Shown here: positions 8,509-43,274 of the stretch, piece after piece
Numbering within the stretch: the stretch's first letter is position 1
Layout of the letters: the number at the start of each line of letters is the position of its first letter
From: Trichodelitschia bisporula
Taxonomy: Eukaryota > Ascomycota > Dothideomycetes > Phaeotrichales > Phaeotrichaceae
NCBI GenBank assembly: GCA_010356995.1
Contig: ML996706.1
Coordinates: 569,509 to 633,508 of the forward strand
Direction: 5' to 3'
DNA length: 64,000 nucleotides
Translations under genes and position numbers: made by a program
Notes under the pieces: generated by a model
The model's input: the letters and a program-made list of their open reading frames with translations, nothing else
Told to the model about the DNA's origin: nothing
The model's database searches: none

Positions 8509-10963
8509 TCATAACCTCCCCAAATCCACCCGTCTCCTCCGTCCCCTCGCCCTAACCTCCCCCCCCGCCCCCCTCTCCTCCTCAAACAACAACCCCCCCA
8601 CAGTCTCCACCAACCCCAGCACCCTCCTCCTCACCGTCCCCCCATCCCGCCTATTCTTCCCCTCCCTCCTAAACGCACTAATCCCCTCCGCAAACTCCCA
8701 CAGCCTGCCCTCAGCCCTCACCTTCCCATCCTCCCCGCGCATCGGAACCCACTCCTCTGCCAGCCTCACAACCTCCCCGCGCGGTCCCTTACTAACAACC
8801 ACAATCCCCTCCTCCTCAAACCTTGCGTACGCATTCTTAAGCGTCTCTTTGTTGACAGCCTCAAAGTAGCTCAGATCCCCTTGGTGATACAACGTCTTGC
8901 CCAGCACCTGCGCCGCATTCTGCACCGCCTTCATCCCCAACCACGCACTTCCCCCCTCCGTCCCCGCCGGCGGCGCAAGCATAATCAGCGACACGGCACC
9001 CAGCCAACTCGCCTCCACAAACGGCCAAATCAGGAAACAATAGAAGTCGAAGTTCTCCCGTCCCGATTCCCTCTCCTTCGCACTCAACTCCACGGTCAAA
9101 ATCTCCCCCTTCCCTTCCTCATCCCCGACCCCAGCCGCATGGGTCACGGTAAGAACAGCATCCCCCTCGAGTCTCGCCACCGTCCTTGCGAGATTGGCAT
9201 CCAGCCCTTCAGGCGGGAAGATAAATTCGCCGCGGAAGAGCTGAGAGAGGAAGAAGACGGCCCGGCGTAGGTCGGACCAGGGCATGCGTTCTGCGGCTGC
9301 GCCGCCGCCGGCTTTGACGCGGGTGTAGAGTGCGGCGGAGACGAGGGCTTCGAGGATGAAGAGGTGGATTGTCATGTTGCGGTAGAAGGAGAGTTGGAAT
9401 CTGCTCCGCGTTAGTGAAGGCTCCATGCCAAAGAGTGGCGACTTACCGGTCGACGGCGAAGTAGGTCTCTTCGACGAGGCCGTCTACTCGTCCTACGAGC
9501 CCGCTCCCGAGTACTTCCAACCCGCGCTCGACGACCACGCCCGTCGGCTGCCCGCCAAAATGCGCGACTCGTCCACCCGCCGCGCGAACCCGCTCGCACA
9601 GCCACTCCACCCGCCGAATCAACTCCGCGCGCCCAACCCCACGGCCCCTCAGCGTAAGTAGCACCGTGCCAATAAGCGCCGTGGGCATCGTAACGCTAAC
9701 CTCATTAATATCTGCCAGCACGCGGTACCCCAAACTCCTCAACAACCGCACCCTGCGCTCCGGCTCCGTCTCCAGCGGGCCCGGCACGGCATCAAACCGC
9801 GCGAACTGGTCGACGCAGAACTCGCGCAGAGACCATGGCTTGTGGAACCGCACGTCGACGCGGCCGAGCTTGAGGCTGAGGATGGACGAGGCGGAGAGAA
9901 AGTCCCGGAGATTTTCCTTCGGTTTGGGTTGTCCGAGGAGTTCGCTGATGTAGCTGTCGACCTCGATAACCTTGTCGTATGCCGTGCTAACCGGGCAGAC
10001 GATCGCGTCCTCAACCCGGCCGGAGAGCACGCTGTCGAGTAAAAAGCGCAAGATGCCGAATTTCGGGCCCAGCAGCTTCCCCGTCCTACTCCGCCCTCCC
10101 TCAATGAAACACTCAAAATTGAACCCGCCCTGCAGCAACGTATCAATATACGCCTGCACCAACGTGCCATAAAGCTGATCATCCCCAAAACTCCGTCTAA
10201 TCCACATCGCCCCCGCATGTTGCAAAAACGGCCCCACCAGCGGAAAATTAAGATTATCCCCAGCCACAACCGTCGGAAGCCCAATCCCCAACCTGTAACA
10301 TATAATCTGCAGCGAGACATAGTCCACATGGCTCTTATGACAGGGCAAGAAAATAATGCTCTGCTTCTTCTTCGCCGCTTGCGCCGCGACGTGCCGGAGC
10401 GCAACGACCTCTTCGCTGCTGACGTGGATCCCCTGGTGGTACGCGCGGGTCAGGAGTTGCGTGACGAGGTAATACGCGCTGCGGATGAAGCGCTTGGAAT
10501 CCATCTTGCAAATCATCGCATCGGTCCATTTATCCGCCACATCGCCCAACTGCGCCCTCAACACCCTCTCCCTCGCCTCCCTTTCCTCAGCAGCACACAA
10601 ATGCCCACCAACCTCCACCTCCACCCTCCTCCTCGCCAGCTCCGCGATCTTAGCCTGCAGCATCGGACTCCCGAGCACAGCATCGCGCATCTTCTCACTG
10701 AACCCGGGGTAAAAAATTGGCTGCCCGACCACATCTTCATAGCTCCTCCATCCCGTCCCACTAACATGCAGCCCGACTTCGCGGAAGAAATCGAGCGGCG
10801 CGCGACGAAACCGTGCCATCGTCTCGATGAGCTCGCGCTCCGAATCGGTCTGCGCGGTGAAGCCCGGTGGGTGGAGGCTGACTTCGGAACCCAGAATGGA
10901 GAGGTCGGGCGGCATGGTGACATCGCCTGAGGGCGCCATGGCTGGATCGTCGGGGGGTGGCAT
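8509..10963 (-). CDS. Glycerone-/glycerol-3-phosphate acyltransferase (GNPAT/PlsB type)
   Basis: Exons 10963-9447 and 9400-8509 encode about 802 residues. The 46-bp intron has GTAAGT, a CACTAACGC branch and GCAG, and the junction reads AVDRFQLSFYRN. The acyltransferase block is clear: HKSHVDYVS (HX4D) near residue 213, GAMWIRR, FIEGGRSRTGK, and a later VCPVSTAYDK. This is the glycerolipid acyltransferase family of animal peroxisomal DHAPAT and bacterial PlsB, which acylates sn-1 of dihydroxyacetone phosphate or glycerol 3-phosphate. Size and a long helical C-terminal region fit the family. I see no clear C-terminal SKL-type peroxisomal signal (it ends DLGRL), so the location is open. The ATG at 10963 opens a proline-rich leader. 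An upstream short exon cannot be excluded. Confidence 0.88.
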
Positions 10964-11507
10964 CGTTGTGAGTGGTAACGCGTTGATGTGTTTTCAATGG
11001 GAAGGTGGAGGTGACGTGCGTCGATGTGGCAGCGTTGGGGATAGGTGTGGCTGGAGCTTGTTGAGCGCCACGACGCTCTTCCGCGGGTCGCGGAGTCACG
11101 TTGCCGAGGCACGGCCGGGTGAGAACAGGCTCATTGGAGCGGTGGTGCTACTCTACGAGCGACAACGCCGACAAAGACAACGACAGCGATACACAACGAC
11201 AGCGAAACACAATGCGCCCAGAGACACGCAGCGCCGCGCCGGCGTATAACAGGTGCAGGCACCGACACGCTGCAGGCCAATGCTGCAGGTATATATTGAC
11301 TGCACATCCACGTCAGCTCCCCGGCCTGCTGGTTATCCAAGTTCACGTCTCGACGGAACATGCAACTCCAGCGAATTGTTCTCGACGATGTTTATCTACG
11401 GTGGTTATCAGGTTTCTGCACGCATTTCGGCATCCGGGTAGGCTGAACGAAGCTACATGGCCAATGGATAAAAAGAAGCGCTCATGAGGGAGCAAAGGGG
11501 TGGATTC
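10964..11507. other. Intergenic region upstream of the acyltransferase
   Basis: I see no gene. It presumably holds the acyltransferase promoter, and lies next to the tRNA-Ile 3' end. Confidence 0.5.
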
Positions 11508-11603
11508 TGGTCAGTACGGGGGTCGAACCCGCGACCTTGGCGTGTACAAGTACATTCAAGACTCATATTAGCACCACGCTCTAACCAACTGAGCTAACCG
11601 ACC
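11508..11603 (-). tRNA. tRNA-Ile: tRNA-Ile(AAU) with 22-nt intron
   Basis: On the minus strand the 5' acceptor arm GGTCGGT pairs with ACTGACC followed by discriminator A. The D arm GCTC...GAGC and the T arm CGGGTTCGACCCCCG are intact. The anticodon stem TGGTG/CGCCA closes the loop C-T-AAT-A, then a 22-nt intron at 11565-11544, then A. The intron sits one base 3' of the anticodon, the canonical place for nuclear tRNA introns. The mature tRNA is 74 nt before CCA addition. It decodes AUU and, after A34-to-I editing, AUC and AUA. It has no close neighbours in a gene-poor stretch. Confidence 0.95.
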
Positions 11604-13691: not shown

Positions 13692-13892
13692 TTAATCATA
13701 TCTCCTCCGCATTGCGGCCTCTCTCGCCAGCACATCAAGGATCTGGATCTGACATTGCCGGCACCGAGTGCGTCCGAATGTCAGTCCATGTAAAACGGTC
13801 TCCCGACAGTGCTCTGGAGTTTCGTCGCAGGGGCGGACCATTTCCTTGTCCCTGTGGCCACAGATGTATTCGACCCACTGATAGATACACAT
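13692..13892 (-). CDS. MC-CGH small Cys/His protein, member 1
   Basis: An intact 66-codon frame starts MCIYQWVEYICGHRDKE and ends in a basic Arg-rich tail. It shows the array pattern: Met-Cys at the start, C-G-H at residues 11-13, a PC about ten residues later, and a C-x2-C pair (CRQC). The spacing suggests a small zinc-bound fold (family-level inference; no known domain recognised). There is no signal peptide or membrane span, so a soluble intracellular protein is likely. It is transcribed away from the plus-strand members of the array and in tandem with the copy at 14069. The stop is TAA. Confidence 0.6.
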   Translation of the reverse strand: MCIYQWVEYICGHRDKEMVRPCDETPEHCRETVLHGLTFGRTRCRQCQIQILDVLAREAAMRRRYD

Positions 13893-14068
13893 TATGGTTG
13901 AAATCGGATTGTGATGGATATGGGATGGATGGACTTAACATTTCGGATGGGATAGGAGGGTATATATACCTCAGACGGGCGATTCACGTCTAAGTTGGCA
14001 AGTGCATTGTAGCAGGTGAATTGTAGCAGGTGAATTAAGCTGATGAATTACAGGTCTTTACAAGGGAC

Positions 14069-14317
14069 TTAACGGCCGGTTAGCACAAGAAATCCAAAAG
14101 GCTGCGGATACTCCTTCGATCGAGATGCGAACGGAACGATCCGCCAACCGTCGGGGAACGTTCTTAATTTCTTACCCTTTACGCACATATAACAAAGCTC
14201 TCTTGTCTCATTCCAGATTGTCTGCTTGTGCCCGGTACGCGACTCGTCCTCGCAGACCTTGACAGGGACGGTGTATTCGTGCCCGCACCAATAAGTGATG
14301 ATCTGGAAGACGCACAT
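14069..14317 (-). CDS. MC-CGH small Cys/His protein, member 2
   Basis: An intact 82-codon frame starts at the ATG of MCVFQIITYWCGHEYT. Then come a further Cys (VKVCEDE), a G-H-K, a Trp, and LCYMC (C-x2-C), followed by a 35-residue tail rich in basic and aromatic residues. The frame stays open upstream to 14386, but the ATG at 14317 matches the start of every other family member, so I chose it. It lies about 180 bp upstream of, and parallel to, the copy at 13692. The function is unknown; the shared Cys/His spacing suggests metal binding. Confidence 0.6.
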   Translation of the reverse strand: MCVFQIITYWCGHEYTVPVKVCEDESRTGHKQTIWNETRELCYMCVKGKKLRTFPDGWRIVPFASRSKEYPQPFGFLVLTGR

Positions 14318-15276
14318 CTTGATCTGCAGAGTTGGATGGAAGGAGATGCTGGAAGTGGAAGATGGAAGGGTGGTGAATGAGTTCATGGGACACTCTTCAA
14401 CGGTATTATACCTGATCGGATGATAAAATGTGAGACCAAACTTTCACTCAGTGAACAACAAATTGTTCGAACCAACAAAGCAGAACCACTTTCATGAGTT
14501 AGCTCTGCGCCATGAGGCAGGCAGCACAGCGGCATTGTTGGAAGCCGCCGCTCAGCCAGAGCGGGCTTGTCAACTTGCTGGTCTCTGCCCGCCTGCCAAA
14601 GTGAGGGAAAAACAGCACCATGTTGAGTTTAGAAACTCGCTGACCTAGCTGAAGGATTAGTATCAATTGCACATCTTGTTGTATACTTCGAAGTCGTCTC
14701 CACTTCGTTGCCTGCCACGCGATCAGGCCTAGAACCACATGGACCCTTGCCGGAGTCCGGGGGTGGAGCTCGGAGGTGGTTCCGGGTCACCACCACAGCC
14801 CTTGCCTTAGGGCAGGATCATGGGAGTCGGGGATTGAAGTCGTCCCTCTACTCCATCTCCTCACGTTTTACCTTCGACTAGGCAATCTTAGAAGAAACAG
14901 CTGGCCTGGCCGCAGAATCAGTTCTATCGCACATTTCATTGAGCATTACGCCCTTGTCGGTCTTTGACGTCTCTCACAGCATTGCTACGGGCTTTGTTGT
15001 CGAAGAAAGGGAGATCAAGACTGCAACGTTTGTGGGCTAACCGCACAATCGTGAGTTCTCTGTGAAGCTTGCGATATCACTTCTGACTTTGCCCAGGGCG
15101 TTTATAGAGCTTCGCTTCCGCGCTTCATTTCTGCTCCTCGCCCGCTCTTCTTTGCAAACGCAGCTTGCTAGATCCCTGATTTAGGCAAACGACAACGCAT
15201 TCCAGAACCTCTGCTCTTCTCCGCCGCCCTTACTCGCCCACTTCCTTCACCGAGCCCGAAGATCTCCGTAAGCAAG
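14318..15276. other. Divergent intergenic region of the array
   Basis: It separates the minus-strand and plus-strand members of the family. I see no other gene. The last 200 bases before 15277 are pyrimidine-rich, typical of fungal core promoters. Confidence 0.45.
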
Positions 15277-15566
15277 ATGTGTGTCGGTTCGTATTACACC
15301 TACTCGTGCGGGCACGGCAACGACCGACCCATCATCGAGCCTTGCACGCAGAGAGCGAAGCCGGCGCACAAGCTTGTCGAGCGCCAATACACGCTCGATT
15401 ATCCTTGTGCCTATTGCAATGGGTATGTTGGCAAGTATCCGAAGGATGTATATGGGGACAGCAATTCCGAGTCTAAGACTCGGAGGAGGTGAGTCTGAAC
15501 TGACATAACGGCACGGTTGACGAATGATGGCTTACGATTGCTCCTTTTAGGTCGCACACAATTTGA
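15277..15566 (+). CDS. MC-CGH small Cys/His protein, member 3
   Basis: The first exon (15277-15488) encodes MCVGSYYTYSCGHGND, a PC about ten residues on, an AHK, and PCAYC (C-x2-C). A GTGAGT donor at 15489 and TTTTAG acceptor ending at 15550 define a 62-bp intron, after which four codons (SHTI) and a TGA follow. Unspliced, the frame ends at TGA inside the donor, so both forms are nearly identical (75 or 71 residues). The last residues are a basic RRR tail. No signal peptide. It is the first plus-strand member, about 950 bp from the minus-strand pair. I do not recognise a named domain. Confidence 0.62.
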
Positions 15567-16031
15567 CATCTTTTGAAACCTCTCTGCTAATGATTGGCGT
15601 GAAAAGAACCGCTCGCAGTGACCTTCAAGCCGCAGTAAGTATGCCCTTGTGGGCACTAGATCAGCACCGCACAGTGCTTCTGTTGTGACGTCCCTGCAAG
15701 TTTGCGCGTAGAAGTACATCTCTTAGTCCATCCCCGGTGAGTGATGCTGCTCGCATTCGCGTTCCTCCTGTCCGGCGACATGAAATGGGCGGCGACTTAT
15801 CTTCTCGGCATGCCCATTGACGCGGCTGCCCCGTTTTTCAAAATAGTGCTTCATGCCTTCGTATTCGTCTTCGAGAACGGCTTCTTGGCTTCTCGATTGC
15901 TCGTACTGGCCGCCTTCCCCCTTGATATTAACCTCATTCTCCCATGTCTCCGCAACCACGCCACAAACTTCGCAACCTCTTTCGCCATCCCCGTTCATTT
16001 TCTACAACCACTTCGCAAGTCCTTTATCAAA

Positions 16032-16672
16032 ATGTGCCTCCAGACCAACTATCTGTACGCCTGCGGCCACGACGGAGGCTTTGACTTCCGCCCGTGCTCC
16101 CGCCGCGACCCGCCGCATAGGCCCGCCTTATACTGCGCCATCCTCTCCCTTACCAAGACGAAAGAGGCAGAGTGCCAGGCATGCGCCGATGAGAAGACCT
16201 GCAAGAAGCTGAAGGATGCCAAGAATCTCGCTGAACAGTAAGTCTGCATCCGTGCTTAGTAGCGTGTGGATAGCATTATGGGCACTTAGAACTTACTAAC
16301 GGCAACAGGACTGCGACAACCGATACTGAGCCAAAGACTCTAGATCTTCTTGCAGAGTCGATCGAGACTCTCGCAAAGGCGACGGACGAGATGATAAAGG
16401 CTTTGCATGAGGTGGATGAGAAGACGCAGACGCTCAACGAGATGAAGACCGCCTATCAGGATGAGTCGGAGTCGGAGTCGTCGGAGGGGGGTGGGGTCAA
16501 GTTGCCCGCTCAGCTTGCGGAGGGGAAGACCGCCCATCAAGATGAGTCGGAGTCGGAGTCGGAGGAGGGTGGGGTCAAGCTGCCGCGCCAGTTTGCGGAG
16601 GGTACGTTCACTGTCCAGCAAGAGTCCGTGGACGATGACAGCGATGGCGACATGAAGTTGCCTGGCAACTGA
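16032..16672 (+). CDS. MC-CGH protein with acidic repeat tail, member 4
   Basis: Exons 16032-16237 and 16309-16672 give 189 residues. The 71-bp intron has GTAAGT, a TTACTAAC branch and CAACAG. The N-terminal part is a family module: MCLQTNYLYACGHDGG, a PC, then ECQACADEKTC (C-x2-C plus one Cys). The second exon adds a helical stretch of about 45 residues and two and a half copies of an acidic unit of about 25 residues (QDESESES...GGVKLP), ending DMKLPGN. No other copy has such a tail, so this member seems to have gained a new domain. Serine-glutamate runs are likely casein kinase 2 targets (inference). It is probably soluble and intracellular. Confidence 0.68.
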
Positions 16673-17995
16673 TACGTGGGCTCGAGCACTCTTCACACTT
16701 TCGTTTTCGGCATCGTGCCAAAACTTGTTTCTCAATGTCCAAGTCAGGTCAAATCTACCATGAATGACTTTTATTCTCGTACACTTCGATGTTTCTTCTC
16801 TTGTGGGCGTTTGAGCTGCCGCGCGTCACTATGAGGCTTCGTAGATATCTCGTCTTTCCACACGAACATTGCTTTCTACTTTCTGCATCGCTAGGAAGAC
16901 AGTTCACCTTTCGTATTCACATTTTAGGCGATTTTTGCGCCCCTTATACGGCCCTATTAACACACAAGCCGCACCGTAATGGCAGACACTAACTGATGGG
17001 CAGAGGAAGGGATATATTACCATACATCGTTACTACCTATACAGTATATACTTACTGCCTGTATTTGAACGGCAGGCATAGTTATAGTATAGTCATTGCC
17101 TACTATTAAGGCAGGCAAGGGAGCATGGTCAACACCGTACAGCTGGCAGGTGTTAGCTAGGGGACAGGAGAAGCATCTATATTGTTGACCTACATATATA
17201 CAGCAGCTCCCCGCGGCCCTTTTGGCCGCGTTGGCAGTTATTCAGTTTTGCTTCTCACACATTGCATCGTGGCATTGTGCTGTCACAATACTAACGCCGG
17301 CCGATACCATACTAACTCGCCAAGCTCAGCCTTGCAGGGATCGCAACGCCGCCGGCATCTGTCCAACATCTAGGAGTATGAAGCCCGTTGAGCTGCCCGC
17401 GCCGGCTGAAGCTTACAGTGATCTAGGACTTGAAGAAGGTGCATGCAAAGCCATGTATTTTGCAAAGGGTTAGGCGAGAGTGGAATTGGCATGTACTCGG
17501 TGAGTTCAAGCCGTTACCCGCTGCACTGGTTACCCGCAACGCTGTTTACCCGCAACACGCATTACCCGCAACGCTGATTACCCGCGACTCTCGTTTCCCG
17601 CAGCACGGAATAGCCACAAGACAAGTTATTCGCAACGCGCATTGCCTTCAGCACCCAGTACTCACCTCTAGGCATATTTCCTTAGATTTATTAGAGGCAT
17701 TATGTGTACTCACAACTTTCCTCACCAAATCGCATGCCGCCTGAGTGAAGCGAAGGGCGAGGAAAGTGATTCATGAATCCAACTACGAGGTTCACAGGGT
17801 GCCTCGAGTACAGCACAAGTTCGGCATTTTGGCTTCACTTGGGTTAATTATGGGTGATGTATAATCCCATTAGGCTGCAGTGTAGAATTGTTCCCTATCC
17901 GCCTCTACTACATCTTCTCTTCTCCACTTCAGCTTTACAGCCACACTTGAAAATATTCTTGATCGACTGACAGCTTTTTGCGGTGTCGTTGTAAG
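16673..17995. other. Gene-poor spacer with tandem repeat
   Basis: No supported gene. AT-rich sequence at 17020-17110 has a short hairpin-forming TGCCTG/CAGGCA pair. A 16-bp tandem repeat lies at 17513-17656 and is listed separately. Confidence 0.5.
17513..17656 (+). repeat. 16-bp tandem repeat, nine units
   Basis: Nine consecutive 16-mers share the core NTTACCCGCAACGCNN, with the second to fourth units most alike and the last three degraded. Three units make 48 bp, so one plus-strand frame (17430-17744) reads as three 16-residue repeats resembling TRNAVYPQHALPA. I see no other sign that this frame is a gene. It lies inside the small-protein array, between members 4 and 5. Confidence 0.8.
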
Positions 17996-18317
17996 ATGTT
18001 GTCCCACATTAAGGAGATGTTGTCTTGCATTGACGAGGATGTAAAGATGCTCTTACGAGGCTCAAATCAATGAAACTTCGCACAACGGCTTGCAAGATCC
18101 TCTGAATGAGCACCCTCACCCAGCCGGGTGTTACGACAAGCTTCAGAAATGCTCTACCTGCGAAAAGATGGCGGGGGACAAGGAGCTGGCATATCAGATA
18201 GCCTGGGTCCTTTTGTACAGCTACAATGATATCCTTAAGGCAACGAGAATGCGAGACTTGCGGACGAAGTTGGCCGCTCCCAAGAACTTCTCCCACACTC
18301 TCAAGCCTTCAATTTAA
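17996..18317 (+). other. Possible small gene or broken family member
   Basis: An ATG at 17996 starts MLSHIKEMLSCIDEDVKMLL and soon meets a TGA. Another frame (18090-18317) continues with CYDKLQKCSTCEKM, a C-x6-C-x2-C pattern, and a basic C-terminus. The two could be joined by an intron I cannot place, or be remains of an array member. The evidence is weak. Confidence 0.25.
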
Positions 18318-18367
18318 GATTTCTGCTCCGCTCACCTCAGATCCGCAGTTTCAAAAGCTCCGCAAAG

Positions 18368-18694
18368 ATTTGCATTGTTACCAAGCTCACGTTCAGCGGC
18401 TGTAAGCACGGCCACTTGGACCCTCGCAAGGGCCGGGTGTGCGATCGCGTGGGGGATCTAAGCAAAGATCACCTGCGCGTCTACGGATGGCTTCCGCGGC
18501 CAGGCTTTTGCCCTCCCTGCGAAGCACAGTTTAAAGAGCTGAATCGGGCGGAGGCTGAAGAGGCGCGGAGACTAGCGATCATTGAAGCGAAGAAGAAACA
18601 TGAACGGATGGCAGAGGAGAAAGATGGCAGAGGAAAAGTACCTCCGCGAGACGTTGGACCGCTTTTTGAGGGACGGCTCCGAATGAAGAGGTAA
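18368..18694 (+). pseudogene. MC-CGH family member 5, start codon missing
   Basis: An open frame of 108 codons reads I-C-I-V-T-K-L-T...G-C-K-H-G-H, then VYGWLPRPGFCPPC, the same block as members 6 to 10, followed by a charged helical tail of about 50 residues ending RLRMKR. Where the other members have ATG-TGC, this copy has ATT-TGC at 18368, so the usual start is lost by one base. The body has no stop, so selection may have acted until recently, or an upstream exon supplies the start. The tail is rich in Ala, Glu, Arg and Lys and probably forms a helix. Either a very recent pseudogene or a gene with an unseen first exon. Confidence 0.5.
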
Positions 18695-18946
18695 GGAGAG
18701 CAAGCCTTGATTGATCAGTCCAGCCTTTGAGCGAGATTAATACCATTCACCTTTTTTGACCTGTAAGAAATGAGTTCCATTTGCCCCGTGTGAAATGTGA
18801 TGCCCATTCACTCGTCTCCGCTGCCCATAAAGCGAGTCGAACCTCGGAAGCCAGTCTTTGTCTGCAACCCGACAAAGCACCTCAGAATCCACAAGGATCC
18901 TAAAGCAAATCACCTTTCCTCTATTGCACCGCTTCTAAAAGCCAAG

Positions 18947-19114
18947 ATGTGTATAGGGACCTACATCACATCCAGTGGATGTGGCTGCAAGCGCCTTAAA
19001 ATGATCACGCGCTGCGGCATGGCTGGTCAGGTGGGCCACGAACCGACAGTTTACGGATCGATATGTCGCCCTGGCCTCTGCGGAGGCTGTGCTGCGGTGA
19101 GATCGTTTTGGTGA
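18947..19114 (+). CDS. MC-CGH small Cys/His protein, member 6
   Basis: An intact 55-residue frame starts MCIGTYITSSGCGCKRLK, has a further Cys, a G-H, VYGSICRPGLCGGC and ends SFW-stop. It has the same length as the member at 20725. The usual C-G-H is C-G-C here, which keeps a metal-ligand-like residue. A duplicated promoter block with CATAAAG about 120 bp upstream precedes it. Ten glycines and eight cysteines make it highly unusual for a cytosolic protein. No signal peptide is evident. I do not recognise a named family. Confidence 0.58.
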   Translation: MCIGTYITSSGCGCKRLKMITRCGMAGQVGHEPTVYGSICRPGLCGGCAAVRSFW

Positions 19115-19369
19115 GTCGGGATGAGCTGGGTGTCAATCTAGCTCTGTGAGAAGATCAATACCATCCGCTTTCCAAAGGACATTGAATGAGTCCGCTTGCT
19201 GTGTGTAAAATGTGATGCCCATTCACCCATCTCCGCTGCCTACATAAGGCGAGTCGAACCGCAAAACTAGGCTTTGTCTGCAATCCAATAAAGCACCTCA
19301 GAATTCCAAAGATCCTTAAGAAACCCGTTTTTCGCTTCTTGTTGTACTGCATCCCGCTTGACATCCAAC

Positions 19370-19680
19370 ATGTGCCTGGGTACCAAAGTCACGCTGGAGG
19401 GCTGCGGCCACGCGGTGTGTTAAAATGAAGTGTGAACTTGACTGAGTTGCTTAACTAACTAGCAGTGGGAAGTGGGCTGACTATATACATCGCCGGGAGA
19501 CGACCCCTGTCTCCTGGCTCCACTCCAGCCACCCCAGGTTGCCACCACAAATTCAACACGGTGATTGACATTTGGGCGTACTGCAACTTGGCTGGTACGC
19601 GGAACCACAGGCTGAGGGCGTATGGGTGGATAAGCCGGCCTGGCGTTTGTGAGGATTGCCTCGCGGGGGCTCCGTGGTGA
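19370..19680 (+). pseudogene. MC-CGH family member 7, interrupted
   Basis: The start MCLGTKVTLEGCGHAV is followed within three codons by a stop. About 180 bp later the family's second half resumes in frame: VIDIWAYCNLAGTRNHR, YGWISRPGVCEDC, ending APW-stop. The intervening DNA has a GTGTGT and a TTAACTAACTAGCAG, so an intron is conceivable, but none of the donor-acceptor pairs I tried joins both halves with good consensus and frame. No other copy has an insert here. Either a gained intron-like insertion or a pseudogene. The flanking block is duplicated with member 8. Confidence 0.5.
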
Positions 19681-19982
19681 GAGAAACCGCAGGTCGAGGG
19701 TTGATGGATCGATAACTCGTCTTGCCATCCACGGAGGCTGCGCCGCAGTGTGATCGCTTCGGTAAGTGAGGATGAACCGGTTGTCAGCATAAGACCTTCA
19801 GAGGATCAATACCATCGCTTCTTTGAAATGCATCGGATGAATCCCACTTACCGCATGTGGAATCTGATGTGAATTCACTCAACATTAGCTGGCTATAAAA
19901 AGCGATCCGAAGTGCAGAACTACTCTTGGTAGTCGAAACCCCAACAAACCCCTCCATAATCCCATCGCATCGAGCATCCGGC

Positions 19983-20147
19983 ATGTATTTTGGTACCAAA
20001 GTCACGCGGGAGGACTGTGGCCATGTAGAGATTGACATGTGAGGATACTGCAACTTATATGGTACGCGGGGCCACAGGCCGAGGCTTTACGGATGGATAA
20101 GTCAACCGGGTTCCTGCGAGAGGTGCCTCCGGAGGAACCTGTTGTGA
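19983..20147 (+). pseudogene. MC-CGH family member 8, in-frame stop
   Basis: It begins MYFGTKVTREDCGHVEIDM, then TGA at 20040-20042 where member 7 has a tryptophan codon, then GYCNLYGTRGHRPR, YGWISQPGSCERC and a final stop. The initial Met-Cys is Met-Tyr. Apart from the internal stop the frame is open for all 55 codons, so the loss is young. The promoter block upstream (TATAAAA near 19893) looks complete. Confidence 0.6.
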
Positions 20148-20329
20148 GAGAAAGCCCAGAAAGAGGGTTTATGGATCGATTGCTTAGATGATTGAGCAGG
20201 AATCGGTTGTCAACCCAGCCTCTGAGAGAATCAATACCATCGCTTCTTTGAAATGCATTGAATGAATCCCACTTACCGTATGTGAATGCAATATGAATCG
20301 ACACATCATCAGCCAGCTGCGGCCTTACG

Positions 20330-20425
20330 GAGACTGACAGAATGGTAGCCTGTAGCCAGCTTGGTGAGAGGAACCGCAGGCCGAAGGCTCATGGATGGAT
20401 AGCCCGTGAGGACTGCAGCTCGTGG
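20330..20425 (+). pseudogene. MC-CGH family relic, member 9
   Basis: Only a degraded piece matching the YC-NL-GTR-NHR...YGW region of members 7 and 8 remains, downstream of the fourth promoter block. Small indels disrupt it. Confidence 0.45.
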
Positions 20426-20724
20426 ACATACGGCATTAGTCGGTTGCGATGAAAGTATTGAGCTTTCTCGTTGATTGTCTGCGAAGAAATCAATGCCCAC
20501 ATTCGTCGGCAAACAATTCGAATCGAGCGACCACCGCTGCTTACCTGTCCGCACATTCCACAATTCTCACAAGCTTCCCTTGACCATCAACCTCCCTCAA
20601 AAGTCAGTCTTTCATTCAGCCTCCGATTTCTAGCGGGAATCAAATTCCTCGCAAGCCCCTCCCCAGGTTTGTCATCCTTTTTTCGAAGTCCAGCGACTAA
20701 AAGCCACAGATCCTACTCGCAAAC

Positions 20725-20892
20725 ATGTGCATATCAACAAAAATCACGTACGCTTGCAGACACACCTACCTGATTGGTGTTACCTACTGCGAGAACCGCG
20801 ACACCTATGGCCATCAAAATAGCGTGTACGGGTGGCTCACACGTCCGGAGCTCTGCTTCTACTGCCTCCCAGAACGGTATGAAGAGATCTGA
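20725..20892 (+). CDS. MC-CGH small Cys/His protein, member 10
   Basis: An intact 55-residue frame starts MCISTKITYACRHTYLIG, continues with YC, TYGHQ, VYGWLTRPELCFYC and ends YEEI-stop. It shows the full family order: M-C, C-x-H, C, G-H, YGW-x2-RP, C-x2-C. It is the last member of the array, and its promoter is not part of the 420-bp blocks. It is the best candidate, with member 6, for a functional short form. Possible roles such as a zinc-bound peptide are inference only. Confidence 0.58.
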   Translation: MCISTKITYACRHTYLIGVTYCENRDTYGHQNSVYGWLTRPELCFYCLPERYEEI

Positions 20893-21480
20893 GGATGCTG
20901 ATGGGATTGTGAATCGGGACTGGTTGAAGGGTGATTGCCACGATGGTTTGATGATGTTCGATGGTGGACTAGAACCCTGAAATCAAGACCAACGTAATCC
21001 AATCCTTGCTGTCGCGTGAGTTCCATGTGCCTGCAGCCGTCAGTGCAGAACGTGGTGATCGCCCATGATCGCCGACAAGGCTACGCATCAACGTCGTCAG
21101 CCAAGCAGCGGGCATATAGATTACATACACGTACAGAACGTCATACGGTACTGTAAGATGTGGCAAACTGCGTCATCGCACCAAGCAAGGCACAGGCGGG
21201 TGCACGGACCGCCTGTGGGCTCTCGCAGGGGGCTTAATGTCCGATGAGCGCGTTGTAATTGGCCAGCGCGCGCCACCACTGAAATGGACGGGCGGGTGTC
21301 ACGTGGCCTGTGCTACCCGTACTTGACTGCCCAGAGCTGTCGCTTTGGGCTCGTCTCGCCTCTTCTCCCTCTCGCTTCGCATTAGCCTCATCTCCACCTA
21401 CCTTCGCTGTCTACATCACCACTTTCGCTCACCACGCGCACATCGACAACAATACCACCACATCCCACCACCCACATCTG
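20893..21480. other. Intergenic spacer
   Basis: No gene seen. The last part is the likely promoter and pyrimidine-rich leader of the gene at 21481. Confidence 0.5.
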
Positions 21481-23406
21481 ATGGCCTTTTGGCCGTTTCG
21501 CAGGAAACGTCGCCGCACAGTCTCTACCGCCCCCGAACCCGCCCCCGCCCCCGCCGCGCTCTACGCTTCCGACCCGGACGTCAAGTCCAAAGACTTCGGC
21601 CACCCCGCCTCGCCCACCTCGCCCACCTCCCCCTCCGACCCCAATCTCTACCGCCCACTCACCACCCTAAGCGCAGAAGACATCACCGCACTCCCACGCG
21701 CCCGCGCCCTGCACACAAGCCCGCATCTCCGACCCGTGCGCCACGACGCCGACATCCCCTACGACTTCCGCCTCCCGAGCAGCACCTCGCTCGCCATGCG
21801 CAACAACGAAGACGACACTATGCCGCGCCGCAAGCCGAGCAAGAAGCGCAAGCGCCCCGGCGACAAACGGCTGCTGCGCGAGGAAGAACTGCGCGCCATG
21901 AGCGCACCGATGCGCGTCCCGTCGCGACGAGGGCCGAATCTGTTGCGCAAGGATAGCAGGCGCGTGAGGGATGGGCTAGGCGTCGGGCGGCGAGGCTTCG
22001 AGCGCCCGGTTAGCCAGGTTAGCTTGCCGCTGGAAGACAGCGTGCATGAAGACATGGAGGCGTGGCCGCCGCATGCGGTGCGGCTGAGCATGATGAATAT
22101 GCTTGCGCCGCGGCCGGTGATTCGCTATGCGACGATGGCGCATTTGTCGAGTTCGAGTGAGCAGCTGGAGCAGCGGGCTGCGTCGCGCGCGCATCGACGG
22201 CCGCAGATGGAGGCGTTGCGGGAGGACACGAAGATTGATGGGTTGGCGGATGATTTGGATTCGAGTGGGTTGCGCGAGATTATGGAGCGCGATCAGCGGA
22301 GGCGTGATCGGAAGAGGAGGACGCATGCTGAGCGGGTGAAGGTTAAGCTGGAGGAGCCGCGCAAGAAGTCGAAGCGTGGGCGGCGGAGGAGGGAGCCTGA
22401 CGTGCGGCCGGCGACTGACGTGCAGCCCGAACCCGCCGCACAGCCCGAACCTGACGTACAGCAAACGGCCGATGTACACCAACACCCCGAAGCGCTGCAA
22501 AAGCTCACGATCCCGCCAATGCCCCTCCTGGAAGACAACGAACCCGAACGAGAACCAGAGCCCGTACCAATTCGCGACATCGCCTCCCCCTCCCCTACCC
22601 CCACGCCCCTCGAATCCCCAACCCCAACCTCCCCCCTCTCCCCCCGCCGCATCGGAATGTGGGCCTCCATCTTCCGCCGCGAACACTCCTCCCCCCACCG
22701 CCGTTCTACACGCCACGACTCCGGCGCCGCCCTCTCCGGGCGCTCAAGCCGCGAACCCCACTCCCCCTCGCCCATGGTCGCCGGCGTCGGCATGGGCGGC
22801 GTTTCCGACGCATTCAACAAAGACAAGGGTGTCGAATTTCCATCCGAACCCCAGTCTGAGCCCGAGCCCGAGCGCTCGTTTAGCAATACGAGTAGGGAAA
22901 GCATCATGGCCCGACACGCGCAGGGCGCGCTTCCGCCGGCGCATTTGTATCAGCCCCCTAGTGGGTCGACGAGGTCGGGGAGTGTGCGTGTGGGGGGGAG
23001 TATTAGGGCGACGAGTCGGTTTAGGGAGGATTTGCCTGAGTTGTCGGTACCGCTGCAGTCAGGGACGCCGACGCCGGTGGCTACGCCGCTTGCGGTGCAG
23101 CCGCCGCAAACGCCGGATAAAACGAGGCGACATCCGTACCGCTCTGGCTCCCCTGCGGAAGCGGTCCTGGGCCCGAGTCGGTCGCTGGCGAGCATTGATA
23201 GTGAGGGGGAGTGGTTGGCTTCCGGGGGGAGGAGGGTTAGTTCGAGGGTTAGTTCGAGGGCGGGGCCGGTGGAGGATGAGGAGGAGGATGAGGTTGTGAG
23301 GAAGGGGGGGGGGATTGCGAGGACGCCGACGGTTATTTGGAGGGAGAATCGGGTTAAGAGTTCGGAGGGCTTGTTGAGGGAGGCGGGGGATGGGGATGAT
23401 CGGTAG
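21481..23406 (+). CDS. Large disordered basic/Ser/Pro-rich fungal protein
   Basis: A single exon of 641 codons. I chose the ATG at 21481 because it opens MAFWPFRRKRRRTVST, a start typical of a group of fungal proteins of unknown function; the frame also runs open from 21310. The N-terminal half has basic clusters (PRRKPSKKRKRPGDKR) that may act as nuclear signals. A helical segment near residues 235-325 (REIMERDQRRRDRKRR) is followed by low-complexity Pro/Glu/Ser regions with SPTSP-type phosphosites. There are no transmembrane segments or catalytic motifs. It is probably a regulatory or scaffold protein, but I cannot name it. Codon use shifts from C-ending to G/T-ending along the gene. Confidence 0.75.
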   Translation: MAFWPFRRKRRRTVSTAPEPAPAPAALYASDPDVKSKDFGHPASPTSPTSPSDPNLYRPLTTLSAEDITALPRARALHTSPHLRPVRHDADIPYDFRLPSSTSLAMRNNEDDTMPRRKPSKKRKRPGDKRLLREEELRAMSAPMRVPSRRGPNLLRKDSRRVRDGLGVGRRGFERPVSQVSLPLEDSVHEDMEAWPPHAVRLSMMNMLAPRPVIRYATMAHLSSSSEQLEQRAASRAHRRPQMEALREDTKIDGLADDLDSSGLREIMERDQRRRDRKRRTHAERVKVKLEEPRKKSKRGRRRREPDVRPATDVQPEPAAQPEPDVQQTADVHQHPEALQKLTIPPMPLLEDNEPEREPEPVPIRDIASPSPTPTPLESPTPTSPLSPRRIGMWASIFRREHSSPHRRSTRHDSGAALSGRSSREPHSPSPMVAGVGMGGVSDAFNKDKGVEFPSEPQSEPEPERSFSNTSRESIMARHAQGALPPAHLYQPPSGSTRSGSVRVGGSIRATSRFREDLPELSVPLQSGTPTPVATPLAVQPPQTPDKTRRHPYRSGSPAEAVLGPSRSLASIDSEGEWLASGGRRVSSRVSSRAGPVEDEEEDEVVRKGGGIARTPTVIWRENRVKSSEGLLREAGDGDDR

Positions 23407-33873: not shown

Positions 33874-34035
33874 ATCGCGGCTTCAAAAGGGTGTGGACGC
33901 TGTGCAGTGCCTGCAGGCAGACACCGGAGTCTACGTTGAATGCTGGCGGCTGAGCAAAAGCCTAGTGCTGCATACAATCAGCGACTTGGGGTTCATAAGG
34001 ACGTTTTTCGCAAAACCTTTCGCTGCGGCAGTGGA

Positions 34036-34160
34036 CTGCAGAGTTGGCCGAGTGGTCAACCTGTTCGTCCACTGCTCCGGGGGTTGGGACCAAGAGGTCA
34101 TTGCCGTAGAAACGTAGAAAGAGAGAAGTCCAGGGTTCAATTCCCGGACATGGCCCTCCT
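34036..34160 (+). other. tRNA-like element or tRNA pseudogene
   Basis: An A-box-like TGGCCGAGTGG at about 34044-34054 and a B-box-like GGTTCAATTCC at about 34134-34144 stand about 90 bases apart. The B-box sits in a hairpin (GTCC-A-GGG...CCC-GGAC). No 7-bp acceptor stem pairs across the element, and the T stem has a bulge. So it is not a normal tRNA. It may be a decayed Leu/Ser-type tRNA or the head of a tRNA-derived short element; a T-run (34268-34275) lies about 110 bp downstream. Confidence 0.35.
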
Positions 34161-35782
34161 AACAGGATGTGGTTTCGAAAGACAGAAAAAGGCATTCTCC
34201 ATATAACGGACCCGGGCGAAGCAGTTGGTGGCAATAGACGGGGGTTAACACACCCCATCTACAATATTTTTTTGCTCCTTTATCATTGGTATGGGCTTGT
34301 GGGGTGGCTGTGGATGCTGGTGGAGGCATCATAATGATGCTTTTTGACTTTTGACGCTGGCTTCGTCGCTTTTTCCCACCACCACCACCGCGTTTGTTGA
34401 CGAGCTGATTTCAGTGCCGTATTTGCCAGGCTCGATTCTAGGGGGTGCAGGCCTTTCAGGAGCGAAAAGGGGGTTGCTTTGCGTCCATCTCGGTGGTATG
34501 CAAAATCATCACGGAAACGGGCAGTCCGTTGGAATGGATTAGGATGAGATGGGCTTCCGGAGAGCACCCCGCGAGTCAAAGTACAACATTGCCATCTGGA
34601 CATGTAACTCCCGCAACGTAACTGCTGAACCCCCTGCCTGCAGGACGTTCCTTCTGACAAGCACGTCGGGACGTGACACTTCTCGGGTGGAAAGGTCTTT
34701 CCATTCGCTTGAGGAGCAGTGTCCTGCATCTTTATCTCATCTACGCCGGCGCCTGCGGAATCTCGAAGGTTAGACTCAATCTCGCTAGATTCATGTCCAC
34801 GGCCATCTCAACCCGCACACCTGCAGCAGGCATTCCTATTACCTTGTTTTACACTTGCAACCCGCACCTTCTCGAGACTGGTGTGCCATCTCCATCCCCC
34901 TCCCCCTTTTCGCACCCCCACGCCTACCACTCCCTCGTCCACTACCCTCATCCCCGAATGAATTCCGCAATCCGTACCCACTCCGCCAAGCCACCATCCC
35001 TCCTTACAGTTGCATCCCCACACCCAAATCTTAAGCTCCACACCCAGCATCGACTTCACCCCGATGTACATTTCAAATATGCCAGTCGTCCCGTTCCTAA
35101 CGCTAGTATCCCGGCACTGCCCGGATCCACACGCTAGCGCTGCGCGCGGGTCGGGCCGCGCCGAGATCCGGGGTAGATCCGCGGCTGAGGCGCGTCATCC
35201 CTATTTCCCGCAAATGTCTACCGTAGTTCTCAACTGTGGAGAACAGGAGAGAGCTTTGCTTGATCTACATGTAGCCAAAGGGGAGCATTACACCGCCAAG
35301 ATTTGTGATTGCTCTTTATGCTAGTTCTAGTACTTGTGCGTGGATGTCGTTTGCACAAGCTTTTTGTCCGTCCTACCTCCACATGCCGCTAGATCAGTGG
35401 TGGGAAGGAGCAGTCATACTGTTGGAAGGGACATACCTAGCCGGCGAAGTGGCAGTGGTAGGAGAGGAGGGAACATCGGAGGCTGTGGGCGGACACTGTA
35501 TCTAACACTGTTTCTAACCTATCTAGCTGTTTCCACCAACTTTCCGCGGTTACTTCCCTAGGAGTGGATGCTCTCTCCCAAACCCAGCTGTGGTTGCTCA
35601 TCCCAAGAATCGGAATGTGCCTTCTGATGTAAGAATACTCTTTCCTTTGGCTAGCCCACCCATTGCTACCATGTAGCCACTACGGACTTACGACGTTCAA
35701 CGTTCACTAGAGCTCCGAAGCATCCTGTTCTTCGTCAAAAGGTCTTGCAACATCCTGCATATTTTACCAACAGTCTTATAAA
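34161..35782. other. Gene-free stretch
   Basis: Only short frames without recognisable features. Confidence 0.45.
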
Positions 35783-36627
35783 ATGCTCCATCGTTTAGCA
35801 ACTATGGCGTCAACTGAAGAACTCGGCATGAGGCCGACCGTCTCCGTTAACTCTGATCCCAAATCTGACACGCCGCCGACAACGGAGCCCTGGAAGAAAA
35901 TTTTGCTGGATTTGCCATGCGAAATACGCCTTCGCATCTATTCATTCCTCACCCTGACTATGCCCTCGTCCCTCCGTATACAGGCTTTCACCATGCCCTA
36001 CCTCTTCCTCTGCGCCAGGACGGAGAGTTGTGCCACCCGGTTATACTCCGAGTCAACAGGCAGATCTACTATGAAGCGATGGAGATTTTCTACTCCAGGA
36101 CCTTCTATGAAATGCATATTCAAGATGGCTGGATTGGCCTTTGCGGCAGGTTATACGGTCCTTTTGTCTGTCCTGATGACCCGTTTACGAAACTCGCCTG
36201 GATCACGCGTCTTCAACTGACGATGGTTTTGGGAAGATGCTTGGCTTGCCCAAAGTTTGTGCGGGCGGCTCTTGGAAAAAATTTCAGTTCTCTCTCGGCC
36301 GGCACGTGTAAACTCTGGGACGTGGACATATGCATCTACGTCCAGTTGCCTGGTGGGGTGCCGAGTCGGAATACCGGGGACCGCCAGTTGGAGACCTGGA
36401 ATGTCGAGCTGGCCCCCCTCAGACAGCTTAAAGGCGTGTCAGTGGGTGATGCGTTCGTCCAGATCGACCCGACAGAAATCAGAATGATACAGCGGCCTGA
36501 TCAATTGGGCCTTGTCGTTAGGTGGATGGATGGGCTTGGCGACCATCTCAAAGACATTGTTCGTGAAATCGAGTGCGGGAATGGCGAGTCCGAGGGAGTA
36601 TCTGATCCGACGGTGGACAGCGGATGA
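35783..36627 (+). pseudogene. 2EXR-type gene with a frameshift
   Basis: The first frame (start at 35783, or 35804 for MASTEELG) reads ILLDLPCEIRLRIYSF, the 2EXR start. From about 35947 the conserved sequence moves to the next frame: PHPDYALVPPYTGFHHALPL, then ILRVNRQIYYEAMEIFYSRT, and on to a stop at 36625. No intron of reasonable size can join the two, since conservation is continuous through the shift. A missing base near 35945-35955 (or an assembly error) is the simplest cause. The rest, about 220 codons, is undamaged, so if real the event is young. Typical 2EXR proteins of this type have 250-300 residues, which fits the total. Confidence 0.65.
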
Positions 36628-37688
36628 GTGGCTCGACGGCAGCAGGGAGCGTGTTTCATTTTGCATCGTACTGAGAATCATAGGGGGCGTCTTATCGTTT
36701 TTCTTTTGGTCCGAGATGGTTTCGGGAAATGGTTATGCTCTGTCCGATGGAGCTGCATCTGAGTCGTGCGGTGTTTGCTTCAGCAATTGGATATTCTTGT
36801 CCCCTTGCTTTGGTCAAAGCTTGCGAGTAGGACGGAGAGATTTGTCTCCATCCCACTATGTATCTTGCTTACCTTGGCCTTCGGGCCAGTCGTCTGGTGG
36901 GCGCGTAGGCGTTAAACGACCTTCATGGGTACATGGTCAGGTTCACTCGAGAGCGGCATCCGTCGAGAGCAGGTCGTCAAGAAACGCTGCTTGCCGCTAA
37001 GCGCCCTACACTTTTAGTCGTTATGAGTCCCTAGCGAAGGAGAATCACTACAGAGGGCCATAGGTCGGAGAGTACCGCAGTACGTAGTATGGATGAAGAT
37101 GAGGTTGGCTTGGATTACGGCTTGTGAAGTTGGTCCTTGGTCCATGGGTTACTCAATAAAGTCGTAGCCGCTCCGACCTGCAAAGACGTTAGGCAGGGAG
37201 GCCACGACTTGTTCGACCGGCCCTTGGTCCATGGGAAGTTAGTTCGCCACCCAACAACTCCTAAAGTCCTGACCACCTCCGTCACCAAAGATGGCCTAGT
37301 TGGACAGCTATGACTTCCTGCGCCCGGCCTTTACACGTATGGTGGAAACCCAACCTCATTAATCCCCCCTTCGACCAACATATGCAGTACGTCAGTCGAC
37401 GGCTACATAATTCCCCATATGCAGCATCCCAGCGCACAAGGCAGGCAACAGTCCTATCAACGCCAATCAGACGTCATCACAGCGCAGGATTCACGTTGGA
37501 ACGTCGAACGCGCAAAGGCTGTGCCCCAACACCACTTCCCCATCCTCTGACTCGTCAGCTAACCAAGCAGCATCTCGCCTTTCGCACTCAAAAGCCGGCT
37601 GATTCCCTGGAAAGATCTAGTTCTAGCATCAGTTCTCACTTCCACAGACTCCATAGTTGTATTCCCGAATCACAGTGGCTGTTTCACG
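36628..37688. other. Intergenic
   Basis: I see no supported gene. An imperfect direct repeat around the phrase CTTGGTCCATGG occurs at 37135-37150 and 37223-37238. Confidence 0.45.
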
Positions 37689-38399
37689 ATGTCATTCCTC
37701 TTTTGCACGGCGTCTACTCTGAGTGATGCGCAGAGTGCAGATGTAAGCCTTACCCCACAATACGGATGGCCCTTCACTCTGAGCGCCTCGCTGACAATAC
37801 AGCTCGTCAACGAGCTAGTGCGAGAGTCCAATAGGTGTTCATATGGCCTGTGGTTCGTCCTCGCTCTGGACCCGATGAAAGCCTACGACCAGCATCAAGA
37901 CAGTATCAAGATCTCTCCCGCCTGTCATACCTCTCCTGCCATATGTCAGAATTTCCCTCTCAGTCCTGTAGACCTTCAGAACAACTCATTCCGAGGCTAC
38001 ACTCTCGAGCAACTGAAAGAGGTGTGTAGGGATCTCCAGGTAAAGCAGGGGAAACGAGATGGGCCTTGGTTGCCTGATCACTTTATCGTGCTGGACGATC
38101 GAAGTGCGAGGGATAAGTCCGCGCTCATTGTCAAGCACAGCTGGGCGCCACCTGACGAGCCACTGGAAGAAAGCTTTCAGCCTTGGACTTATACGCGCAC
38201 CATCTTCCGCCATGTTGGCTTCATTGCGACGCTGTATGAAGTGGCTGGTGGTTCTGGCTGGGATGAAATGGAGGACGGACGAGGGAAGTACACCGACGAG
38301 CACGGCATTGTGCAAATTCCCGAATGGGACCGTGACCCGAGTACCTTCCCTGATTTGCCGGAGGAGCTGTGGGCGCCTTGGGGTGATGAGAGGCGTTAA
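37689..38399 (+). CDS. Hypothetical protein, DUF6924-like
   Basis: A single exon of 236 codons from ATG 37689. The stretch YTLEQLKEVCRDLQ followed by DHFIVLDDRSARDKSALIV resembles fungal proteins given the DUF6924 label, in which a VLDxRSxxD motif precedes a strand. The N-terminal 70 residues are poorly conserved in appearance, and the start may lie further in. The C-terminus is acidic and tryptophan-rich (LPEELWAPWGDERR). No signal peptide or membrane span. The function of the family is unknown. The 3' end and flank are duplicated just downstream. Confidence 0.55.
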   Translation: MSFLFCTASTLSDAQSADVSLTPQYGWPFTLSASLTIQLVNELVRESNRCSYGLWFVLALDPMKAYDQHQDSIKISPACHTSPAICQNFPLSPVDLQNNSFRGYTLEQLKEVCRDLQVKQGKRDGPWLPDHFIVLDDRSARDKSALIVKHSWAPPDEPLEESFQPWTYTRTIFRHVGFIATLYEVAGGSGWDEMEDGRGKYTDEHGIVQIPEWDRDPSTFPDLPEELWAPWGDERR

Positions 38400-38870
38400 G
38401 AGGAAGGGAAGGCAAATATCTGATACGTCAACTGGTCTGTCCGCTATCATGTTTCCAAATTGTTATCGCTGAGCATTCTCTTTGAGAAAGGCAATGGAAC
38501 CTTGAATTCTAGCAACCCGCAATCGATCCTAAAGTCTTTCCGGTGCAAATCGCAACGCGCTGAAGGAGCGGAATCTTGAATTTTAGCAGCCCGCAATCGA
38601 CCCTTTAGTCTTCCCGGTGCAAATCACAACGAGCCAAATTGAACGGAACGCCCAGGGAGCTGTGGGAGCCTCGGGGTGAAAAAAGGCATTAAGAGGAAGA
38701 AGGGAAGGCAAAACTTTGACACACCAACTGGTATGTCCCCATCATCTTTTCAAATCGTTATCGCTGAGCATTCTCTTTGCGAAAGGCAATGGAATCTTGA
38801 ATTCTAGAACTAGCAACCCGCAATCGATCCTACAATCTTCCCGCTGCAAATCACAACGCATCAAAAGAGC
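38364..38870 (+). repeat. Tandem duplication of the gene's 3' end, period 293 bp
   Basis: The segment beginning GAGCTGTGGG at 38364 recurs at 38657. It includes the last codons of the gene at 37689 (the copy reads ELWEPRGEKRH-stop) and about 200 bp of 3' flank with AGCATTCTCTTTG and CAACCCGCAATCGATCCT. A third partial copy of the CCGCAATCGA segment lies at about 38587. Confidence 0.8.
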
Positions 38871-38967
38871 GGAACGCCTAGGGAAGCGCCACTTCGCCTG
38901 AGCTAAAAGTCAAAGACAAAGACACGAAGCAAAGCAAAGCAAAGCCCCAAGTTTCCTCCGCAGGTTA

Positions 38968-43170: not shown

Positions 43171-43274
43171 CGACAACGGCAGGATTCGAACCTACGCTCC
43201 CGAAGGAACTGCCTTACTAACCCAAGATGATGGCGTATAGCAGGGCAGCGCGTTAACCACTCCGCCACGTTGCC
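43171..43274 (-). tRNA. tRNA-Ser: tRNA-Ser(GCU) with 23-nt intron
   Basis: On the minus strand GGCAACG pairs with CGTTGTC (one G-U), discriminator G. The D arm GGCGGAGTGGTTAACGC, the long class II variable arm TTCCTTCGGGAGC and the T arm GTAGGTTCGAATCCTGC are intact. The anticodon stem CTGCC/GGCAG holds the loop C-T-GCT-A, then the intron (43237-43215), then A. The mature molecule is 81 nt and decodes AGC/AGU serine codons. It stands alone in a gene-poor region. Confidence 0.95.

What the first reader, a model, noticed from the sequence alone, without database searches (positions are those of the whole stretch)
13692..20892. An array of about ten tiny Cys/His genes of one undescribed-looking family
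Seen: at least nine frames begin Met-Cys (or decayed versions of it) and share the order C-x-H, C, G-H, Y-G-W-x2-R-P, C-x2-C, in 55-110 residues; two lie on the minus strand, the rest on the plus. They range from intact to relic. The conserved Cys/His spacing suggests a mini metal-binding fold. I know no named family with this layout. A birth-and-death cluster of such short proteins is the best candidate here for a new system, for example in defence, competition or host interaction (inference).
Basis: partly seen in the sequence, partly recalled or inferred. Interest (0 to 1): 0.82.

Follow-up and report, generated by a model that had tools for sequence, protein, structure and literature searches.

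The report
Fungal family of mini zinc-binding proteins
A filamentous fungus carries small gene clusters for an unnamed family of tiny proteins that begin Met-Cys and keep the same seven likely metal-binding positions while almost everything else in them changes; what they do in the cell is not known.

Summary
The array is real. Six intact frames start Met-Cys and keep C-x-[H/C] … C … [C/H] … C-x2-C; three further stretches are relics and a fourth is doubtful. The pattern gave no match in 60 Markov resamplings of the window. The window shows one of several sites: this 25.65-Mb genome holds at least 16 intact members on five contigs (6+5+2+2+1) plus relics. No pair shares a 5-residue word (0 of 120), yet a profile of 15 recognises the 16th in 16 of 16 cases (E 8e-6 to 2e-12). 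Seven Cys/His-rich columns average 88% identity, 43 others 13%; two ligand positions swap Cys and His, as metal sites do. No Pfam or NCBIfam model reaches its cut-off. Two AlphaFold models give three strands; the closest solved fold, not significantly, is ribosomal protein bL31. Best reading: an intracellular two-site zinc mini-domain at the extreme N-terminus, used as a binding module and spread by duplication and loss. Defence or competition roles have no support here. Distribution in other fungi could not be tested fairly: the protein search needs shared 5-mers that even these paralogs lack.

The parts
13692..13892 (-). intact member, 66 aa, MC...CGH...C...C-x2-C
   Evidence: profile of the other 15 members E 8.1e-11
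14069..14317 (-). intact member, 82 aa; an in-frame ATG 23 codons upstream exists
   Evidence: leave-one-out E 7.6e-11
15277..15492 (+). intact member, 71 aa as read; splice-donor-like GTGAGT at the end of the frame (from 15489)
   Evidence: leave-one-out E 1.3e-9
16032..16672 (+). intact two-exon member, predicted 189 aa: exon 1 16032-16237 = the Cys/His domain, intron 16238-16308, exon 2 16309-16672 = acidic tail (helical by eye only) with an in-frame repeat of about 26-27 residues
   Evidence: leave-one-out E 7.8e-6; decayed relatives on C2, C3, C24
18368..18694 (+). near-intact relic, 108 codons, start codon replaced by ATT, keeps YGWLPRP and C-x2-C
   Evidence: 14.5 bits in six-frame scan
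18769..18908 (+). upstream region of the 18947 gene, 82% identical to 19185-19323 upstream of the 19370 relic
18947..19114 (+). intact member, 55 aa as read, CGC instead of CGH; GTGAGT at the end of the frame
   Evidence: leave-one-out E 1.3e-6
19370..19680 (+). broken copy: 5' piece 19370-19420 (ends at a stop after 17 codons) and displaced 3' piece 19558-19680
   Evidence: 13.8 and 16.1 bits; offset from repeats D2 and D4
19983..20145 (+). broken copy: starts Met-Tyr, TGA at codon 20, keeps the 3' half
   Evidence: 3' half 15.1 bits
20302..20407 (+). doubtful remnant of the 3' half of a unit
   Evidence: direct repeat D1; profile E 0.2
20725..20892 (+). intact member, 55 aa, modelled with AlphaFold2
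   Evidence: leave-one-out E 1.5e-11

Best explanation
This is one of several small arrays of an unnamed fungal gene family coding for an intracellular mini zinc domain of about 50 residues that sits at the very start of the protein. SHOWN: conserved layout; one family by profile; several arrays plus a singleton in the genome; relics; near-invariant ligand positions against strong divergence elsewhere; a canonical intron right after the domain in one member. INFERRED: seven ligands hold two metal ions. Site A (C-x-[H/C] plus C-x2-C) is a structural knuckle like that of bL31. Site B uses Cys2, the middle Cys and the Cys/His of the 'GH' position, probably completed by the N-terminal amine after removal of Met, by water, or by a partner. 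The domain acts as a small folded docking module (for protein or RNA) whose surface and C-terminal tail diverge quickly; copies arise by tandem duplication and are lost. What they bind is unknown; my first guess is intracellular adaptor or regulator peptides rather than secreted effectors.
For: Six intact window members; at least 16 genome-wide on five contigs: C20 6, C15 5, C4 2, C5 2, C9 1. Nine of the ten members outside the window were found by protein similarity, one (C5_a) only by the local motif scan. Leave-one-out profiles recognise 16 of 16 (24-45 bits; best shuffle per run 8.7-16.0 bits). Seven columns with 12 or more C/H (2, 12, 14, 24, 33, 52, 55) average 0.88 identity, 43 other columns 0.13; column 14 is His in 14 and Cys in 2; Cys at column 32 or His at column 33 in 16 of 16; TGT and TGC both occur at each of the five Cys columns tabulated, so Cys is kept while codons change. 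The internal second domain of C5_b keeps CGH and CPAC but lacks the Cys2, middle-Cys and GH-His equivalents together (my hand alignment of the sequence; profile 11.7 bits in the whole frame, 15.1 bits alone), which suggests the 4+3 split. AF2: pLDDT 85.6 and 70.0, same three strands; bL31 chains are first in both Foldseek lists (E 0.15 and 0.20; chain names). In 10 of 16 genes no in-frame ATG lies between the preceding stop and Met-Cys. Exon-1 fragments of the 16032 type differ at 18/109, 19/110 and 32/107 of codon positions 1, 2, 3 (summed from four comparisons, all against one gene).
Confidence: 0.62

Rival explanations
1. Small cysteine-rich secreted effectors or antimicrobial peptides, with Cys in disulfides.
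For: Short, Cys-rich, fast-diverging tandem genes are typical of fungal effectors (general knowledge; paper listings).
Against: Frames read from the conserved Met-Cys have no hydrophobic signal-like start by eye; two positions exchange Cys with His, which disulfides would not tolerate; the domain starts at residue 1, where a signal peptide would have to be. Upstream in-frame ATGs in 6 of 16 genes leave a small opening.
Confidence: 0.1
2. A Met-Cys N-degron family: the invariant Cys2 is there to be exposed and oxidised, making the proteins oxygen- or redox-controlled.
For: M1-C2 in 16 of 16 (M1 is partly imposed by the motif scan); Met-Cys proteins are the substrates of this pathway in plants (PMC11773813, start of abstract and passages).
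Against: The same review says PCO and ADO oxidases are almost entirely absent from fungi except Chytridiomycota (passage); the internal domain of C5_b lost other ligands together with Cys2, which fits a metal site better.
Confidence: 0.08
3. A decaying remnant family: most copies are neutral relics and only the 16032 type or none is functional.
For: Three relics and a doubtful piece in the window, scattered fragments on C2, C3 and C24, ACG in place of ATG in a C4 copy, a ligand lost in C15_a.
Against: 16 open copies with 88% identity at Cys/His-rich columns against 13% elsewhere, with synonymous codon changes at the Cys columns, are hard to explain by neutral drift.
Confidence: 0.12
4. Genomic-conflict genes (spore killers, incompatibility or anti-element factors) expanding by birth and death.
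For: Tandem arrays, relics and strong divergence are what such genes show (general knowledge).
Against: No known conflict gene among the ten window frames scanned; the only evidence is the mode of evolution.
Confidence: 0.1

Closest known systems
Bacterial ribosomal protein bL31 (zinc-binding form)
   Same: Short, mostly beta protein with C-x-C ... G-H ... C-x2-C (sequence recalled, accepted as L31); rank 1 in both Foldseek lists.
Fungal small secreted protein families with a short conserved motif, e.g. the IGY family of Marssonina brunnea (PMC4367982; search listing and start of abstract only)
   Same: Large family of short fungal proteins with a conserved N-terminal motif.
   Different: Those are secreted; here the conserved domain starts at residue 1 with no evident signal peptide, and Cys/His exchange points to metal.
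RING finger of ZNF598 (Pfam PF25447)
   Same: Best single Pfam hit of any member: C15_d, E 0.0024, 18.6 bits, residues 6-61.
   Different: Below the cut-off of 27 bits and seen in 1 of 16 members; the RING ligand order was not compared.
Unnamed short Met-Cys proteins of other filamentous ascomycetes (recalled, from no call)
   Different: Recall is a lead only; no record was retrieved, and that sequence matches no Pfam model.

Membership tests
bL31 ribosomal proteins | sequence similarity to bL31 | tested here: inconclusive
   profile A2 against solved structures: five hits at E <= 10, none bL31
bL31 ribosomal proteins | bL31 fold | tested here: inconclusive
   top-ranked but not significant
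Any Pfam-A family | score above the gathering cut-off | tested here: not met
   six window members and ten others: no hit reaches its cut-off; best 18.6 bits against 27 (RING_ZNF598, 1 member)
Any NCBIfam family | score above the curated cut-off | tested here: not met
   16 members, best 19.8 bits against a cut-off of 32
Secreted cysteine-rich effectors | N-terminal signal peptide | tested here: inconclusive
   none seen by eye in frames from Met-Cys; no predictor was run; upstream in-frame ATGs in 6 of 16
Zinc-binding domains | bound zinc | not testable with these tools
   inferred from Cys/His exchange
Cys N-degron substrates | N-terminal Cys oxidised and protein degraded | not testable with these tools
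   oxidases reported almost absent from fungi (PMC11773813 passage)

The most novel reading that the evidence does not exclude
A new kind of zinc mini-domain that can only form at a protein's N-terminus: after Met removal, Cys2 gives both its thiol and its free amine to a second, partly open metal site. This would explain why the domain begins at residue 2, why only three side-chain ligands are left over for that site, and why the one internal copy found (C5_b) has lost exactly those three. Such a site could act as an intracellular metal or redox switch, duplicated into arrays with different tails.
Probability: 0.17. Interest if true: 0.72.

Novelty: new variant of a known kind. Interest (0 to 1): 0.5.

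Why it matters
The family escapes annotation because its members are mostly 50-70 residues long, share no words and match no Pfam model, although a profile joins them clearly. Such families may be common among fungal 'orphan' genes, and the motif given here lets others count them. If the N-terminal metal site is real, it is an unusual way to build a regulated metal centre.

Tried and rejected
Protein database: two searches with alignments A1 (16 candidates, none at E <= 0.01) and A2 (9 candidates, none at E <= 10). Not read as absence: 0 of 120 pairs of our own members share a 5-mer. Control: the window's TYW2-like protein found 1522 proteins at E <= 0.001 (120 listed; only 7993 candidates scored), the named ones listed being fungal, the best-scoring non-self one 40% identical over 99%, so the database holds fungi but no close relative of this host appeared.

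Mended on review: the cut-off claims for Pfam and NCBIfam, which and one search showed only for one member, were re-run member by member.
Full report
OBSERVATION. The ORF listing and a six-frame motif scan find six intact frames with Met-Cys, C-x-[H/C], C and C-x2-C at 13692-13892(-), 14069-14317(-), 15277-15492(+), 16032-16241(+), 18947-19114(+) and 20725-20892(+). They are the only six matches of the full pattern in the window; 60 order-2 Markov resamplings of 64 kb gave none. The pattern was drawn from these sequences, so the leave-one-out test below is the better evidence. Relics: 18368-18694 (ATT for ATG), 19370-19420 with 19558-19680, and 19983-20145 (four pieces at 13.8-16.1 bits, E 0.0017-0.0091), and a doubtful piece at 20302-20407 (E 0.2). 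A frame antisense to the 13692 member scores 12.8 bits in the same scan, so the relics rest on DNA similarity to their neighbours as much as on the profile.

ONE FAMILY, SEVERAL ARRAYS. Searching the host's own genome (G000, 25.65 Mb, 30 contigs) with single members gave further members on other contigs. Reading eight 10-kb regions around them gives ten more intact frames: C15 five within about 3.2 kb, C4 two (with a third copy between them whose first codon is ACG), C5 two, C9 one. With the six of the window that makes 16 on five contigs. Nine of the ten were found by similarity, C5_a only by the motif scan. These numbers are lower bounds, since the genome tool scores only its best candidates and the scan covered only the regions fetched. 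One C5 protein is 336 aa; the other, 149 aa, has a second, internal copy of the domain. Fragments related to the 16032 gene lie on C2, C3 and C24. No pair of the 16 shares an exact 5-mer (0 of 120), yet a profile of the other 15 recognises each one at 24-45 bits, E 7.8e-6 to 2.3e-12, against best shuffles of 8.7-16.0 bits. C15_a, counted as intact, has Tyr for one of the C-x2-C cysteines.

SELECTION AND METAL. On the 16-row alignment, seven columns with at least 12 C or H (2, 12, 14, 24, 33, 52, 55) average 0.88 pairwise identity and 43 other columns 0.13; column 32 is not among the seven. M1 and the Cys of columns 2, 12, 24 and 55 are invariant, that of column 52 is present in 15 of 16. Column 14 is His in 14 and Cys in 2. 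At columns 32/33 every member has Cys at 32 or His at 33 (16 of 16). Cys/His exchange is expected of metal ligands and not of disulfides. TGT and TGC both occur at each of the five Cys columns tabulated (1 TGT of 16 in column 24). M1 is partly imposed by the motif scan. For the 16032 exon 1 and its broken relatives the differences sum to 18/109, 19/110 and 32/107 at codon positions 1, 2, 3, a modest third-position excess that counts one gene four times; exon 2 shows none (4/34, 7/33, 7/34), and the relic pair 19540/19983 gives 4/38, 10/39, 12/38.

GENE STRUCTURE. The 16032 gene has a textbook fungal intron (16238-16308) and then runs to 16672: 189 aa, exon 1 being the domain, exon 2 an acidic tail with an in-frame repeat. 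The frames of 15277, 18947 and C9 also end on GTGAGT-type donors, so exon 1 = domain may be general; no transcript was available and no acceptor was tested for these three. In 10 of 16 genes no in-frame ATG lies between the Met-Cys codon and the preceding stop; in 6 of 16 (14317, 16032, 18947, C4_b, C15_a, C15_e) there is one or more.

MECHANISM (INFERENCE). Seven ligands suggest two metal sites. The internal second domain of the C5 149-aa protein keeps C-G-H and C-x2-C, but the residues at the places of Cys2, the middle Cys and the GH-His are Ser, Thr and Gly by my hand alignment; the profile finds this domain with 11.7 bits in the whole frame and 15.1 bits alone. That single case suggests site A = C-x-[H/C] + C-x2-C and site B = Cys2 + middle Cys + Cys/His, and that site B needs the N-terminus. 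N-terminal Cys as a degron is less likely because the oxidases are reported almost absent from fungi outside Chytridiomycota (PMC11773813, passages seen). I therefore favour intracellular zinc mini-domains acting as docking modules with variable surfaces and tails. What they dock to is not known; defence, competition or conflict roles are possible but rest only on the way the genes evolve.

SURROUNDINGS. To the left lie a glycerol-3-phosphate acyltransferase gene (9446-10993) and a tRNA, to the right a long open frame (21283-23406). GC is 0.51-0.52 in the three 2-kb bins from 14 to 20 kb against 0.57-0.61 in the neighbouring bins. No repeat-induced mutation signature. Upstream DNA is duplicated with the genes (18769-18908 and 19185-19323, 82%). 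Host: the named relatives of the TYW2-like protein in the listed 120 are filamentous ascomycetes, the best-scoring hit of any kind 40% identical, so I take it for an isolated lineage of Pezizomycotina; the species was not determined.

KNOWN OR NEW. No Pfam or NCBIfam model reaches its cut-off for any of the 16 members (best 18.6 of 27 and 19.8 of 32 bits, one member each), and five literature searches aimed at it listed nothing. That is a lead, not a test. I rate the family as an undescribed variant of a known kind (small zinc domains), and the N-terminal metal site as its most interesting open possibility.

Noticed in passing
window 18769-18908 and 19185-19323: Tandem copies share upstream DNA at 82% identity (115/140) while the first 42 coding bases downstream match only 24/42: shared promoter under constraint, or gene conversion.
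   Followed up: partly
window 40581-41336 (+): Frame starting with a hydrophobic leader (by eye) and matching DNase NucA/NucB (PF14040, E 1.1e-7): a likely secreted nuclease.
   Followed up: no
window 39083-39655 (-): Putative secreted protein with a hydrophobic start (by eye), no Pfam match.
   Followed up: no
window 34001-46000: Second AT-richer stretch (GC 0.51-0.55) with secreted-looking and unnamed frames, like the array region.
   Followed up: no
window 11508-11603 (-) and 43171-43274 (-): tRNA genes of 96 and 104 bp, long enough to hold introns (Rfam).
   Followed up: no
window 17514-17609: 16-bp tandem repeat TTACCCGCAACACTGA, about 4.5 copies, between the 16032 gene and the next relic.
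   Followed up: no
L043 (C24), L042 (C3), L044 (C2): Fragments of the 16032-type gene, 75-82% identical in DNA, in separate pieces on C24 and C3 and one piece on C2: a formerly larger subfamily now mostly broken.
   Followed up: partly
L037 6108-6383 (C4): Complete-looking domain whose first codon is ACG instead of ATG: lost start or non-standard start.
   Followed up: no
L040 4897-5343 (C5): Two-domain protein whose internal copy lacks the three presumed site-B ligands.
   Followed up: partly
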